From the NCBI GenBank assembly GCA_964023275.1, contig OZ029920.1, positions 5,126,014-5,190,013 on the forward strand: a DNA stretch of 64,000 bases. Reading direction: 5' to 3'. The notes under the pieces were generated by a model. That model was not told the origin of the DNA, searched no databases, and saw nothing but the letters and a program-made list of their open reading frames with translations. The translations under genes were made by a program, and so were the position numbers. Positions 37,876-58,549 of this stretch are shown here, in pieces. Numbering within the stretch: position 1 is the stretch's first letter; each line of letters starts with the position of its first letter. This DNA comes from Norana najaformis. Its lineage: Eukaryota; Annelida; Clitellata; Crassiclitellata; Hormogastridae.

Positions 37876-37939
37876 CGTGGACACCTTTAGATCGTTTGTT
37901 TCAACGTTATATACAGTATTTCTCAGTTTAATTCAATCA

Positions 37940-38057
37940 AACTACGCCACTGCCTTGTTTTGGGGTTGTGCCTGTCCCAAGCCTGGATAAAGGAGGAGGG
38001 CGACGTCAACGGCTATTTTATTTGTTTTAAGCTGTCGTTAAACTGAGGAACTACTAC
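37940..38057 (+). mobile_element. R2 short retroposon copy with target-site duplication
   Basis: ACTACGCCACTGCC ... AACTGAGGAACTACTACT, flanked exactly by TAATTCAATCA on both sides (37,929-37,939 and 38,058-38,068). Confidence 0.85.
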
Positions 38058-38084
38058 TAATTCAATCACAAACTCCCCCACTGC

Positions 38085-38665
38085 CTGTTCACACGTGCGT
38101 CCATATGACGCTTATATGAGCATGTTCAAATCGAACCATAAACTTTAATCTTCATCAGGGGGCAATTTTAAATCAAGACTGGAAAGTTTGACACTACCAA
38201 GACTTTTAAGGAGTAATTTGTCTGTAAACAATTGGAGTTCCAAGTGGTTAAATCTGCACACCCACGAACCTTCGGTCAATACTGGTATGGTTGACTTTTG
38301 GAGCCCGGGTTACGAAGGGTTTTGAAGCGTAATTTAAAGCATAAAAATACAATGAAAGTTAACTTTAAGCGATTAATTTATGTGTAAATGGCGAGAGTCT
38401 GCCAAAGGGTTAAAACGAATACTCCAAGATGAAGTTGACTTTCTGCGTGTAAGACTGGAGTTGAAGAAGACTTCTGGCAAACAAAGATATGCAGTCTACC
38501 ATTGTCTGGAGACATTGCAATGAAGTGTTTGTAAAACGTAGAGTGTCCAGTGTAAAAGGTAAATGCAAATGTACACGTTTTTCTACAGAGACCATGATAG
38601 GCGACATCTTAATTATGGCTGCTATTGTCGTTGACGTCGACCTTATCTGACCTAAGTAAGGCAAG
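38085..38665 (+). pseudogene. TRIM-kelch copy 4, last ~12 codons and 3' flank
   Basis: Starts at CTGTTCACACGTGCGTCC (the HTCVHM coding stretch), then GAGCATGTTCAAATCG and the same flank through GGCGACATCTTAATTATGG and GTTGACGTCGACCTTA. Like copy 3 it is followed by a LINE tail and GCTTTTGTATGT. Confidence 0.75.
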
Positions 38666-38750
38666 AACGAAAGTAAGATCTCACCAATAAGCGCTTAGCT
38701 TAGAGTAACGATTAGAAATTTTGGAGATTACGATTAGAAAGTGCTTTTGT
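38666..38750 (+). mobile_element. LINE-A/B 3' tail shared with copy 3
   Basis: CACCAATAAGCGCTTAGCTTAG ... GGAGATTACGATTAGAAAG. Its presence in copies 3 and 4 only implies that these two share a more recent ancestor. Confidence 0.55.
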
Positions 38751-38784
38751 ATGTTCTGGCGCCTAGTGGTTTCGAAGGAGAAGG

Positions 38785-39168
38785 ATAACACGAAGAAGAA
38801 TACAAAGAATACGAAGAAGAATACGAAGAATACGAAGAAGAATACGAAGAAGAATACGAAGAAGAATACGAAGAAGAATACGAAGAATAAAGAAGAAGAA
38901 GAAGAAGAAGAAGAAGACGAAGAGGAATAGGAAGAGGAAGAGGAATAGGAAGAGGAGAAGGAGGGGGAAGAGGAAGAGGAAGAGAAAGAAGAAGAGGAAG
39001 AGGAAGTAGAAGAGGAGAAGGAGGGGAAGAGGAAGAGGAAGAGGAAGAGGAGAAAGAGGAGGAAGAGGAAGAGGAGAAGGAGGAGGAAGAGGAAGAGGAG
39101 AAGGAAGAGGAGAAGGAGGAGGAAGTGGACGAGGAGAAGGAGGAGGAAGAGGAAGAGGAAGAACGGTG
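38785..39168 (+). repeat. Purine tract: (GAATACGAAGAA)n then GGAAGAGG array
   Basis: 12-15-base units with AATACGAAGAAG at 38,795-38,890, then GAGGAAGAGGA words to 39,165, nearly free of pyrimidine. It is followed by GGTGTGCAATTTTTGTC, as after the other purine tracts. Confidence 0.85.
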
Positions 39169-39542
39169 TGCAATTTTTGTCAACATTAACTGCATTAAAG
39201 ATATGCGACACGGCTTCCAAATATGAGAAATATTAGACACCTTTATATAATTTTCTCCGTAGCTATTTCTGATTTTCGTTTAACCGCTAATTGTCAGTGT
39301 TGTTCATAACCATACAAAAACGGAAGTCTAAGTCAACGGCTCTGACAGCCACAAGAGAAATAAATGTAAAAGGAAACGTACAATATTTTCTATATAAATA
39401 AATGTAAAAGTAAAGAAAAGCAAGGCAAATTAGTTATACATCCGGTTTGAAGTTTGAAGCGTGGCGACACCTATTCCCCAGGAAGAAAAACTTGGATGCC
39501 TTGAAAAAATGGGTTCGGCTGTCTCCGGTATCAACAGACACG
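39169..39542. other. R1 remnant and flank of the THAP exon
   Basis: An R1 core in minus orientation at about 39,330 (AAGTCAACGGCTCTGACAGCC). The frame of the THAP exon is open upstream to 39,447 without a better start. Confidence 0.4.
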
Positions 39543-56720: not shown

Positions 56721-57305
56721 AGATGACGTCAATAAATCACTGAAATTCGATATTTTTCTCATAGTATATAAACTGTAATGGAAAGAAAGAAAAACTGAAG
56801 CCAGTAGTTATGAGCGCCAGAAGCTGTCGTTAAACAATGAATAATAATAATGATGTTTTAGGTTATGCTAATACACCTTTAAATCGCTTTTCTCTGGCGT
56901 TATATAAATATATAAATATACAGTTTGTTCAATGAAATCGTAAATCGAAGAATATAACTGCATATTACATATTAAAGTAAGGTCAACGTGAGAGCCCCTG
57001 GTGGGGTTAAGATGTTATTAAACACATGATACTATATGTAGAACGGTGTGTAGAGTTGGAAGCCAATATCTTCTTTAATATCGATACACACACAAAACCG
57101 CAGTAAATATTAATTAAGAATGCGATGTAAGAAAATGTCGACGTCATTGGACCAGGCAGCCGCATGATGTCGTGACAAACCAAAGATGCGGCTAATAACA
57201 GCCTCTATTTAGACACCTTTAAATAGCATTACCCTACGTTATAAACCTCTGATTCTTGTAATATGGTTAGTTTGCCCACTATTAATGATAGGTAGATGTC
57301 GTTGA
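56721..57305 (-). repeat. R1 higher-order block, unit 5
   Basis: TGACGTCA at 56,724-56,731, AATCACTGAAATTCG, AAAGAAAGAAAAACTGAAG, ATACACCTTTAAATCGC, AAAACCGCAGTAAATA, GTCGACGTCATTGGACC, the GGCTAATAACAG site, GGTTAGTTTGCCC, GTAGATGTCGTTG. It is interrupted at 57,310 by LINE-C. Confidence 0.65.
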
Positions 57306-57562
57306 ACTCTCTTCAGGCAAATATTCGCTCGGCAAGGTCTGCTTTGGCATTCAGATCTCGACTTAAAACTTATCTTTTCCTGAACTCATTTCCTCCGTAG
57401 GCTGTCTCTGTGACTTCTGGACTCCTCTCTGGCTTTTCGACCCGGACTCACCATGCAGTTTGATTCGGACAATGATTTTGTTTAGCAGCGACCATCGACT
57501 GATGCCTTGAGCATTATTACAGTGGCGCTATAGAAGATTTTAGATTAGATTAGACACTGCAT
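57306..57562 (+). mobile_element. LINE-C 3' end with ORF2 C-terminus
   Basis: One frame reads LQANIRSARSALAF-like residues then FRSRLKTYLFLNSFPP and stop, followed by AGCAGCGACCATCGACTGATGC, GGCGCTATAGAAG and the (AGATT)n tail. It is inserted in R1 unit 5, which resumes with ACACTGCATGTTAATAAATAT. Confidence 0.75.
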
Positions 57563-57770
57563 GTTAATAAATATTTTTATTTGATTTAGACACCCCTAAA
57601 TCGTATCTTTGGTGCTCTATAAATTTGATTTTCGATTGAACACTAGTAGTCTACTATCCATTTACGAAGGAAAAGTCGATATGAACGATCCTGGAAGCCA
57701 CAAGATGTCGTTAAACGCTGCGTGATCGACTAATAATAATATTTGGCTTTGTCCAACATTATTAATTAAT
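57563..57770 (-). repeat. R1 unit 5, continued
   Basis: TTTAGACACCCCTAAATCG, GTCGATATGAACGATCCTGG ... AGATGTCGTTAAACGCTG and CTTTGTCCAACATTATT match the last sub-blocks of units 1-3. Confidence 0.6.
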
Positions 57771-58178
57771 TAATTAATTTATTTATTTATTTATTCATTC
57801 ATTCCGAGCACCTGTAGAAAACCCCTTCGAGATACTATCATTATAATTATAATTATAATTATAATAATAATTATTATTATTATTATTAGTAGTAGTAGTA
57901 GTAGTAGTAGTAGTAGTAGTAGTAGTTATGGTAGTAGCAGCAGTAGTAATAGTAATAGTAGTAGTAGTGGTAGTAGTAGTAGTAGTAGTAGTAGTAGTAG
58001 TAGTAGTAGTAGTAGTAGTAGTGGTAGTAGTAGTAGTAGTAGTAGTAGTAGTAGTAGTAGTAGTAGTAGTAGTAGTAGTAGTAGAATTGAGCAGCAATAT
58101 CTAATGACAAAGCATCAAGAGCAACCTTCTCAGGGGAGGAGGAGGAGGAGGAGGAGGAAGAGGAGGAGGAGGCTCGAA
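57771..58178. repeat. (TTAA)/(TTTA), (TAATTA), (TAG)n and (GGA)n simple repeats
   Basis: TTAATTAA and TTTATTTA at 57,765-57,800; ATTATAATT at 57,840-57,885; TAG units with a few TGG/CAG changes at 57,887-58,085; GGA units at 58,134-58,170. All long frames across it (poly-Thr, poly-Tyr, poly-Ser) are artefacts. Confidence 0.95.
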
Positions 58179-58345
58179 CCCGCAAACTCCTCGTTAAAAG
58201 GAGAGAACTGAACCGATCGGCAACTGTGTCACTCGGAGGCGTTCCAAGTCCAGTCTCCCCGGGGAAAGCGTTTCAAGTGTTTGGGGAAGAGTCATGCGGT
58301 TACGTGCAGACCTGGAAGGAGGCCATTCCAGGTGGTTGACGCAAA
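58170..58345 (-). mobile_element. tSINE-1-like fragment, inverted
   Basis: GGCTCGAACCCGC gives a B-box complement and GATCGGCAACTGTGTC an A-box-side complement, preceded by a (GGA)n tract. Diverged from the other copies. Confidence 0.4.
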
Positions 58346-58362
58346 CACTAAAAATGGAAGGA

Positions 58363-58478
58363 ATAGTAGTAGTTTCAATATTTAACGACATCTTATGGCA
58401 TCAAAGGCCGTTGACGTCGCCCTCCTCGTTTTTCCAGGCTTCGAACTGGCGCTACCCGACTAAAGGCAGTGGCGGAGT
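58363..58478 (-). mobile_element. R2 short retroposon copy with 14-bp target-site duplication
   Basis: ATAGTAGTAGTTTC ... GGCAGTGGCGGAGT, flanked by TAAAAATGGAAGGA (58,349-58,362) and TAAAAATGGTAGGA (58,479-58,492). Here the target is not R1, which shows the element moves by itself. Confidence 0.92.
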
Positions 58479-58549
58479 TAAAAATGGTAGGACGCGATAG
58501 TAAGTTTATTTATGGATGCGCAGTCAAAAACAAGAAGCAGTTATCCTCA

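What the first reader, a model, noticed from the sequence alone, without database searches (positions are those of the whole stretch)
37929..58492. R2: a very short (about 115 bp) retroposon with target-site duplications and no visible Pol III promoter
Seen in sequence: at least ten copies share one end (AACTCCGCCACTGCC), a middle (CCAGTCCCAAGCCTGGATAA) and another end (GTCGTTAAAC then GAGGAACTACTACT). Copies at 33,397, 37,940, 40,638, 41,651, 42,808 and 58,363 are flanked by 10-14-base direct repeats, three of them perfect (TAATTCAATCA, AATCGCTAGTT, TAAATGGTTA). Variable-length duplications and a trinucleotide tail on one side are what target-primed retroposition gives. No A-box/B-box pair is visible, which is unusual for a SINE. 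I do not recognise the family.
Basis: partly seen in the sequence, partly recalled or inferred. Interest (0 to 1): 0.78.

Follow-up and report, generated by a model that had tools for sequence, protein, structure and literature searches.

The report
Tiny retroposon with a self-cutting ribozyme
This roughly 113-base repeat, present in thousands of copies in what looks like an animal genome, appears to be a jumping element made of little more than a self-cutting RNA (a twister ribozyme) that would trim its own front end and an RNA hairpin that would recruit another element's copying enzyme, which could explain how it spreads without a promoter of its own.

Summary
In detail: 16 copies of a ~113-bp element (R2) with a sharp 5' end AACTCCGCC and a (TAC)n 3' end lie in the window. 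Of 98 testable window and genome copies, 37 have flanking duplications scoring >=9 against 12 of 6000 mismatched flank pairs. No A-then-B box occurs in 137 copies. The predicted scissile bond falls at the element's first base, and published work says twister cleaves without stem P1, the part the element lacks. The 3' half is a covarying hairpin. The exact 27-mer core occurs 2,874 times in the 608-Mb genome. Best explanation: a non-autonomous retroposon whose 5' end is made by self-cleavage of a read-through transcript and whose 3' hairpin recruits a LINE, like Drosophila 'SIDEs' but with twister instead of an HDV-like ribozyme. Partner LINE, RNA and cleavage are not shown. New variant of a known kind.

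The parts
8439..8550 (-). R2 copy; twister match 8486-8555 (50.2 bits); TSD ATATATTTCT with 6 extra nt before AAC
33400..33513 (-). R2 copy; twister match 33448-33518 (65.7 bits); TSD ATGCATATTT/ATGCTTATTT
37940..38056 (+). R2 copy; twister match 37935-38005 (45.3 bits); TSD TAATTCAATCA; starts 11 nt after an R1b block
40639..40751 (+). R2 copy inserted inside an R1 unit; twister match 40634-40702 (44.6 bits); TSD TAATTGTAGATT/TAATTGCAGATT; the joined flanks restore an R1 unit
41652..41763 (+). R2 copy with the best twister match of the window (41647-41717, 71.1 bits, over the Rfam gathering score 67.2); TSD AATCGCTAGTT
41652..41712 (+). twister ribozyme core of that copy (model position 6 to the GAGGG); predicted scissile bond between 41651 and 41652
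   Evidence: alignment; scissile bond from PMC5408937 (passages)
41713..41745 (+). 3' hairpin of that copy (outer and inner stems), followed by TTAAGC...GGAAC and the TAC-type tail
42134..42246 (+). R2 copy; twister match 42129-42197 (39.7 bits); no clear TSD
42808..42920 (+). R2 copy; twister match 42803-42871 (54.0 bits); TSD TAAATGGTTA; joined flanks restore part of an R1 unit
45751..45863 (+). R2 copy; twister match 45747-45816 (38.8 bits)
46023..46124 (+). R2 copy of a second subtype (hairpin GACGCT..AGCGTC); twister match 46018-46081 (29.9 bits)
47969..48080 (+). R2 copy abutting an R2 3' fragment (47935-47963); twister match 47964-48032 (46.8 bits)
48100..48211 (+). R2 copy, second unit of a tandem pair; twister match 48095-48162 (27.8 bits)
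53684..53793 (+). R2 copy, variant of the second subtype; twister match 53679-53748 (48.1 bits)
54258..54355 (+). diverged R2 copy; the only one of the 16 without a twister match at E<=1
56126..56183 (+). 5' half of R2 only (twister match 56120-56197, 39.7 bits), running into a GAG microsatellite
58367..58479 (-). R2 copy; twister match 58415-58484 (49.6 bits); TSD TCCTACCATTTTT/TCCTTCCATTTTT
58961..59071 (+). R2 copy downstream of an R1b block; twister match 58957-59025 (38.7 bits)
38071..38085 (+). R2 5'-end fragment (AACTCCCCCACTGCC) just after the TSD of 37,940
47507..47561 (+). R2 internal fragment (model 36-90)

Best explanation
R2 is a non-autonomous non-LTR retroposon of about 113 nt made of two functional RNA parts: a 5' twister self-cleaving ribozyme (about 60 nt) and a 3' recognition end (two-tier hairpin, TTAAAC..GGAAC, then a short (UAC)n tail). 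It has no visible promoter. A copy is transcribed as part of a longer host transcript; the twister cuts at its own 5' boundary and frees an RNA that begins AAC...; a LINE reverse transcriptase, probably RTE-like, binds the 3' hairpin/tail and copies the RNA into a nicked target by target-primed reverse transcription, leaving 10-14-bp duplications. The next copy carries the complete minimal ribozyme but not the upstream strand of stem P1, which twister can do without. Shown here: ribozyme homology, coincidence of the predicted scissile bond with the insertion boundary, covariation of the 3' hairpin, TSDs, R1 units restored when flanks are joined, no Pol III box pair, thousands of copies. Inferred: transcription by read-through, actual self-cleavage, recognition of the hairpin, identity of the LINE.
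For: Twister: RF03160 at 15 of 16 window copies at E<=0.09, best 71.1 bits, over the gathering score; 30 of 62 scored genome hits over it, 0 of 14 control genomes; all 30 fetched loci of these carry R2's first model position at the hit; 20 of 20 scanned loci chosen by DNA similarity (of 36 such) carry the match. Model position 1 lies 5 nt upstream of R2's start in 13 and 4 nt in 2 of the 15 window matches, so R2 begins at the A just 3' of the scissile bond. Of 37 copies with a good TSD it ends exactly at AAC in 19, within 1 nt in 30, within 2 nt in 34. Twister without P1 cleaves at almost wild-type rate and the base 5' of the bond is not conserved (PMC5408937, passages incl. abstract). Divergence in 68 copies not chosen by the ribozyme model: GAGGG 0.9%, P4 2.9%, L4 3.4%, T2 4.0%, P3 4.5%, P2 6.2%, free loop L3 10.4%. 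Written structure: 95.0% of cells paired, covariation 0.102 vs 0.070 shuffled (0/500) and 0.014-0.028 slid; hairpin pair 70-96 is GC 72, UA 25, CG 4, UG 1, unpaired 19. TSDs 37/98 vs 12/6000. 12 of 50 joined flank pairs give an R1 unit across the junction, 10 of 12 at unit positions 64-66. 2,874 exact 27-mer cores, reversed control 0. A then B box: 0 of 137.
Against: No RNA or cleavage data. Most copies score below Rfam's gathering threshold (window 1 of 15 above; 0 of 35 hits; 32 of 62 scored genome hits below), at least partly because P1 is missing. MFE folding of one copy is no better than shuffles (z -0.71), though it shows the P3, P4 and 3' hairpins; P2 is in a shifted register. The base 5' of the scissile bond is T in only 15 of 56 DNA-chosen copies, and P1 pairing with the flank is at chance level in 51 DNA-chosen and 8 window copies. 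The number of pairs with changes on both sides (12) is no higher than in the structure slid by +2 or +3 (13 each), and the ribozyme helices give little covariation. The stems of the 3' hairpin diverge more (7.9% and 11.3%) than its loops (4.5%). No LINE with R2's 3' end was found, but few families were seen: 25 of the 30 RT loci are one family. 61 of 98 clean copies show no strong TSD. Core conservation could partly reflect recent common descent and choice by similarity. The cross-joined control of the empty-site test was uninformative (73 of 492 span).
Confidence: 0.8

Rival explanations
1. R2 is a conventional SINE (small-RNA-derived head, LINE-derived tail) whose Pol III promoter has decayed or is unusual.
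For: Size, dispersed copies and TSDs are SINE-like; one window copy (58,367-58,479) has a B-box core.
Against: 0 of 137 copies hold an A box followed by a B box, 1 of 137 a B-box core, 3 an A-box pattern; no tRNA, 5S or 7SL match over R2 in Rfam at E<=1; the head matches a twister ribozyme.
Confidence: 0.04
2. R2 is a retrozyme-like element: tandem units are transcribed, cut by two ribozymes into monomers, circularised, and the circle is reverse transcribed.
For: Head-to-tail R2 copies with 123-133-bp spacing occur (16 tandem junctions in 11 runs among 137 copies); metazoan retrozymes are short tandem repeats with hammerhead ribozymes (PMC7229834, passages).
Against: Most of the 137 copies are not in such runs, many have their own TSD, and they share a constant start; units of tandem arrays are separated by locus-specific sequence that in several arrays repeats the flanking target (L040, L041, L049, L050), so repeated insertion or unequal exchange fits better than a multimeric cDNA.
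Confidence: 0.08
3. The twister is a passenger: R2 descends from an element with a twister, but its present copies move by another route (own Pol II transcript or chance template use) and the ribozyme is dead.
For: Flank base and P1 are not those of the Rfam consensus; most copies score below the gathering threshold.
Against: P1 is reported dispensable (PMC5408937); core segments diverge less than the L3 loop; TSDs abut the predicted cleavage site.
Confidence: 0.07
4. R2 copies are only 5'-truncated 3' ends of a longer LINE.
For: A shared 3' end with a hairpin and microsatellite tail is what LINE ends can look like (general knowledge).
Against: 137 of 158 matches reach one 5' boundary, at a predicted ribozyme cleavage site; truncated LINEs would end at scattered points. 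The profile used starts at that boundary, so sequence further upstream was judged by TSDs only.
Confidence: 0.02
5. R2 is a MITE or other DNA transposon.
For: Short, abundant, flanked by direct repeats.
Against: Ends AACTCCGCC and GGAAC(TAC)n are not inverted repeats on reading; TSD length varies 10-14 bp and tail length varies.
Confidence: 0.01

Closest known systems
SIDEs (Short Internally Deleted Elements) of Drosophila R2 and R2/R1 (PMC3414825, passages incl. abstract)
   Same: Non-autonomous, not transcribed by Pol III; a 5' self-cleaving ribozyme that frees the RNA from a cotranscript plus a 3' end recognised by a LINE reverse transcriptase; target-primed insertion.
   Different: SIDEs have an HDV-like ribozyme, sit in 28S genes, are longer (529 bp for R2Dwi_SIDE) and have known parent LINEs. 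R2 of this window has a twister, is ~113 bp, is dispersed in thousands of copies, and no parent has been found.
RTE-superfamily LINEs with truncated twister ribozymes at their 5' end (stated as 'Martin and de la Pena, in preparation' in PMC7761336, passages)
   Same: A truncated but catalytically competent twister at the element's 5' end, proposed to process the 5' end from upstream transcripts.
   Different: Those are described as retrotransposons of the RTE superfamily; R2 has no coding sequence. Their sequences were not seen, so kinship was not tested.
Type-P1 twister ribozyme, Rfam RF03160
   Same: Sequence and structure match including the conserved L4 loop, P2, P4, both pseudoknots and the A at the cleavage site.
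   Different: The upstream P1 strand is not part of the element.
Metazoan retrozymes with hammerhead ribozymes (PMC7229834, passages)
   Same: Short non-autonomous retroelements with a self-cleaving ribozyme, sometimes in tandem.
   Different: Hammerhead, RNAs of ~170-400 nt, tandem repeats and circular RNAs; R2 copies are mostly single, with TSDs and a defined tail.
L1Tc/ingi-clade elements with HDV-like 5' ribozymes in trypanosomatids (PMC4035085, start of abstract in the listing)
   Same: A ribozyme that takes part in releasing RNA from cellular cotranscripts, found in mobile elements of the genome.
   Different: HDV-like fold; trypanosomatid host.

Membership tests
twister ribozyme (type P1) | Covariance-model match to RF03160 | tested here: met
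   15 of 16 window copies at E<=0.09, 1 over the gathering score; 30 of 62 scored genome hits over it; 20 of 20 DNA-chosen loci scanned, of 36 such, none over it.
twister ribozyme (type P1) | P2, P4 and two pseudoknots T1 (CCC/GGG) and T2 (GC/GC) | tested here: met
   94.8%, 96.7%, 96.4% and 96.3% of cells paired over 121 distinct copies; they hardly vary, so covariation says little.
twister ribozyme (type P1) | Conserved A 3' of the scissile bond | tested here: met
   First A >=90%, second A invariant in 122 copies.
twister ribozyme (type P1) | Stem P1 at the open end | tested here: not met
   The upstream strand is flanking DNA; pairing is at chance level in 51 DNA-chosen and 8 window copies (the script stopped before the third set). 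PMC5408937 states that P1 is dispensable for cleavage (passages).
twister ribozyme (type P1) | Self-cleavage | not testable with these tools
   Needs RNA.
SIDE (5' ribozyme + 3' LINE end, non-autonomous) | 5' self-cleaving ribozyme at the exact element boundary | tested here: met
   By sequence only.
SIDE (5' ribozyme + 3' LINE end, non-autonomous) | 3' end recognised by, and derived from, an autonomous LINE of the genome | tested here: inconclusive
   A covarying 3' hairpin exists; in 26 of 30 RT loci the 3' end could be read and none is R2-like, but 25 of them are one family; the window's LINE fragments differ too.
SIDE (5' ribozyme + 3' LINE end, non-autonomous) | Insertion by target-primed reverse transcription (TSDs) | tested here: met
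   37/98 vs 12/6000.
SINE | Internal Pol III promoter (A and B boxes) / small-RNA head | tested here: not met
   0 of 137 with A then B box; no tRNA match over R2 at E<=1.
retrozyme (non-LTR, metazoan) | Hammerhead ribozyme in short tandem repeats, circular RNA | tested here: not met
   Ribozyme is twister and no hammerhead match was listed for the window; 16 tandem junctions among 137 copies; circular RNA not testable.
MITE | Terminal inverted repeats, fixed-length TSD | tested here: not met
   The two ends are not inverted repeats on reading (no inverted-repeat program was run); TSD lengths 10-14 bp.

The most novel reading that the evidence does not exclude
A promoterless class of 'ribozyme SINE': a ~113-nt element consisting only of a P1-less twister and a LINE-recognition hairpin, so that every copy lying in any host transcript can in principle free its own retroposition-ready RNA; it has spread to thousands of copies and reinserts with strong site preference at one position and in one orientation of an older repeat (R1), sometimes repeatedly at the same target so as to build arrays separated by the same target duplication.
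Probability: 0.45. Interest if true: 0.8.

Novelty: new variant of a known kind. Interest (0 to 1): 0.67.

Why it matters
[quoted passage not shown] Here a twister forms half of a very short dispersed element, and its predicted cleavage site coincides with the insertion boundary in most copies with a readable junction, which makes a role in 5'-end formation directly testable. It would show that a retroposon needs neither coding capacity nor a promoter, only a 5' cutter and a 3' docking hairpin, and it would give a natural setting for P1-less twisters: the element cannot carry the strand upstream of its own cut.

Tried and rejected
Pol III SINE: rejected on boxes and on Rfam. A first idea from memory, that the 'CCCAAGCCTGGATAAA' block is the tail of fish RTE/HAmo-type elements, was recall only: a text search for that and related strings listed 4 papers, none on retroelements by title, and a viral-contig scan found nothing; Rfam then gave twister. 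Cross-joined flanks as a control for the empty-site test were not useful (73 of 492 cross-joins also span an R1 unit), probably because many R2 copies sit at the same R1 position; the test therefore rests on position (10 of 12 at unit positions 64-66). The LINE partner was looked for by RVT_1 (30 loci of 150 matches listed), by the window's LINE fragment (no loci cut), by 5' ends of two LINE families and 3' stretches of one (no twister match at E<=5) and by tblastn in fetched loci. Of the 30 RT loci, 4 had no readable 3' end (L086, L093, L096, L100); the R2 profile hits two of the 30 (L081, a copy on the opposite strand; L100, a weak hairpin match), both hundreds of bases beyond the LINE's end. 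A 25-mer of the ribozyme core is absent from prokaryote and viral contigs. A count of how many of the 2,874 cores are followed by the 3' end could not be had. The first TSD statistic on 119 copies had an inflated null (99 of 4000 at >=9) because flanks of tandem copies contain R2 tails; it was redone without them. The script stopped with an error after the counts cited here.

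
Full report
What was checked. The shared blocks and copies are in the sequence as described. A profile built from 12 copies and iterated finds 73 matches in the window: 16 with the 5' end and 57 others, nearly all to the 3' half only, a few of them R2 fragments. The window belongs to an unnamed assembly of 608,420,607 bases in 17 contigs; RING/B-box and kelch open frames suggest an animal (inference). The exact 27-mer of the element's core occurs 2,874 times (1,442 forward, 1,432 reverse; reversed control 0).

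Flanking duplications. 137 unique 5'-complete copies (of 158 profile matches) were obtained from 82 sequences searched: 74 R2 loci, 7 LINE-end loci and the window. After dropping 23 copies whose upstream flank looks like an R2/R1 tail, 9 without a usable 3' anchor or at an edge, 6 truncated and 1 at a locus edge, 98 were scored. A score of 9 or more (length minus 3 per mismatch) occurs in 37 of 98 against 12 of 6000 flank pairs taken from different loci; 12 or more in 13 of 98 against 0 of 6000. By source: window 5 of 12, loci chosen by DNA similarity 16 of 37, loci chosen by the ribozyme model 16 of 49. 36 of 37 duplications are 10-14 bp long. They end exactly at AAC in 19, within one base in 30 and within two in 34 of 37. 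The tail after GGAAC varies from nothing to about four TAC units. This is target-primed reverse transcription in form.

What the 5' half is. Rfam identifies it as the type-P1 twister ribozyme: in the window 15 of 16 copies match at E<=0.09, one over the gathering score (41647-41717, 71.1 bits against 67.2) and one just below (33448-33518, 65.7). In the genome the search scored 62 of 42,432 first-look candidates; 30 exceed the gathering score, and none of 14 control genomes rings. All 30 fetched loci have R2's first model position at the hit. To avoid choosing by the ribozyme model, 20 of the 36 loci that had been fetched by DNA similarity were scanned: all 20 carry the match, none over the gathering score. 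In the 15 window matches model position 1 lies 5 nt (13) or 4 nt (2) upstream of R2's start, so the element begins at the A just 3' of the scissile bond. The element thus starts where the ribozyme would cut. Twister is reported to cleave without stem P1 at almost wild-type rate, releasing a single nucleotide, and the base 5' of the bond is called non-conserved (PMC5408937, passages including the abstract). R2 lacks the upstream P1 strand; flank pairing to it is at chance level in the 51 DNA-chosen and 8 window copies that were counted before that script stopped with an error; the base at -1 in DNA-chosen copies is A 28, T 15, G 7, C 6 of 56. If P1 or a U were needed after all, most genomic copies would be inactive in place; this is the main uncertainty.

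The 3' half. 122 copies were aligned (A1) and a structure was written from the twister model (pseudoknots partly from recall, agreeing with the passages) plus a two-tier 3' hairpin. 95.0% of cells are paired; the covariation score is 0.102 against 0.070 in shuffles (0 of 500) and 0.014-0.028 when slid. 12 of 28 pairs show changes on both sides, which is above shuffles (4.4) but not above the structure slid by +2 or +3 (13 each); cells with such changes are 52 against 11-19 when slid. The strongest is hairpin pair 70-96 (GC 72, UA 25, CG 4, UG 1, unpaired 19). The helices of the ribozyme vary too little to test much by themselves. In 68 copies not chosen by the ribozyme model, mean divergence is 0.9% in GAGGG, 2.9% in P4, 3.4% in L4, 4.0% in T2, 4.5% in P3, 6.2% in P2 and 10.4% in the free L3 loop, as expected if source copies keep the ribozyme; choice by similarity and recent ancestry could contribute. 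The hairpin's stems diverge more (7.9% outer, 11.3% inner) than its loops (4.5%), so there the case rests on covariation, not on low divergence. Folding one copy alone gives z -0.71, no better than shuffles.

Where it inserts. In the window the same 3' hairpin alternates with another conserved block (R1b) in degenerate arrays of roughly 165-bp period (my reading of the table). 30 of 137 R2 copies lie 5-31 nt downstream of R1b on the same strand, against 1.2% of random positions and 0 on the opposite strand. Joining the flanks of 50 copies with TSDs (the set, tandem copies included) gives 12 that restore an R1 unit across the junction, 10 of them with the insertion at unit position 64-66. So R2 is often an insertion into R1 with a strong site and strand preference; the cross-joined control was uninformative (73 of 492). 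R2 and R1 share the hairpin, so the R2 3' end and R1 look related, but the direction of descent is open.

Promoter. 0 of 137 copies have an A box followed by a B box; 1 has a B-box core and 3 an A-box pattern.

Partner. Of 150 scored RVT_1 matches, 30 were fetched. 25 of them are one LINE family (1009-aa frame where full, RTE-like by my reading) that ends in TGA(GAACG)n or variants; one ends (TGACA)n; in four the 3' end could not be read. The window's own LINE fragments end in (ATG)n and (GACAA)n. None has R2's hairpin or (TAC)n tail at its 3' end. Three 5' ends of the 1009-aa family and two of another family carry no twister match at E<=5. Few families were thus seen; the mobilising LINE is inferred, not found.

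How it most likely works. Read-through transcript (inferred), twister self-cleavage at the 5' boundary (inferred from homology and junctions), recognition of the 3' hairpin/tail by a LINE reverse transcriptase (inferred; hairpin supported), target-primed reverse transcription into R1 and other sites (supported by TSDs and restored R1 units), giving again a copy that begins with the cleaved ribozyme.

Against what is known. It works like the Drosophila SIDEs (PMC3414825, passages including the abstract), which join a 5' HDV-like ribozyme to a 3' LINE end and are not Pol III transcribed. A 2020 review mentions, as work in preparation, truncated twisters at the 5' end of RTE retrotransposons (PMC7761336, passages). 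Searches of the held library (twister ribozyme + retrotransposon, 15 papers; four of five terms on twister, ribozyme, SINE, 15 listed; twister + RTE + ribozyme + line, 2 papers) listed no paper that I could recognise as describing a twister-headed SINE-like element; one search held 2,092 papers of which only 10 were shown and says little. Most subscription papers and all preprints are outside that library, and Repbase, Dfam and SINEBase could not be searched. Verdict: real, not a SINE in the strict sense, a new variant of the ribozyme-headed non-autonomous retroposon.

Noticed in passing
window 26,688-63,852, both strands (table): R1: degenerate arrays in which a ~50-bp block (TTAGACACCTTTAAATCG..GACGTTATATATT..) alternates with the 3' hairpin also found in R2, roughly 165 bp apart; densest at 47-59 kb. 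Origin and relation to R2's 3' end unresolved.
   Followed up: partly
L040 (G000:C8:4071500-4072800), also L041, L049, L050: Head-to-tail R2 arrays: in L040 six copies each preceded by the same ~9-bp target sequence (AAGGACGAT) but with different bases at the 5' junctions (A, A, none, C, CA, C) and different tail lengths, as if several insertions had hit the same site; unequal exchange is not excluded.
   Followed up: partly
L106, L107, L108 near base 535-616: The three sampled 5' ends of the 1009-aa LINE family give a weak match to an HDV-like ribozyme model (RF02682, 23.5-25.8 bits against a gathering score of 44, E 0.13-0.42) at the same place, the start of the shared sequence: possibly a second ribozyme-headed element in this genome.
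   Followed up: no
window 50,584-51,351 (-): C-terminal fragment of a LINE, ending in GGCCCATGG(ATG)n and flanked by AAAATAGTCA repeats; the genome search gave 151 matches, most above 90% identity, and says more are not listed.
   Followed up: partly
window 60,999-61,405 (-): Diverged LINE C-terminal fragment followed by a (GACAA)n tail.
   Followed up: no
window 55,286-55,483 (+): A 3'-hairpin copy whose short TAC tail runs into a ~50-unit ACT microsatellite, suggesting that such tails seed microsatellites.
   Followed up: no
window 46,023-46,124; 53,684-53,793; 54,258-54,355: R2 copies of a second subtype: 46,023 has the hairpin stem GACGCT/AGCGTC instead of GACGTC/GATGTC and ends AAACAGAAAC; the other two are variants of it.
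   Followed up: partly
window 25,252-26,196 and 30,184-32,701 (+): Two similar open frames at 25,252 and 31,760 (the second matches kelch repeats), one beside a RING/B-box (TRIM-like) open frame.
   Followed up: no
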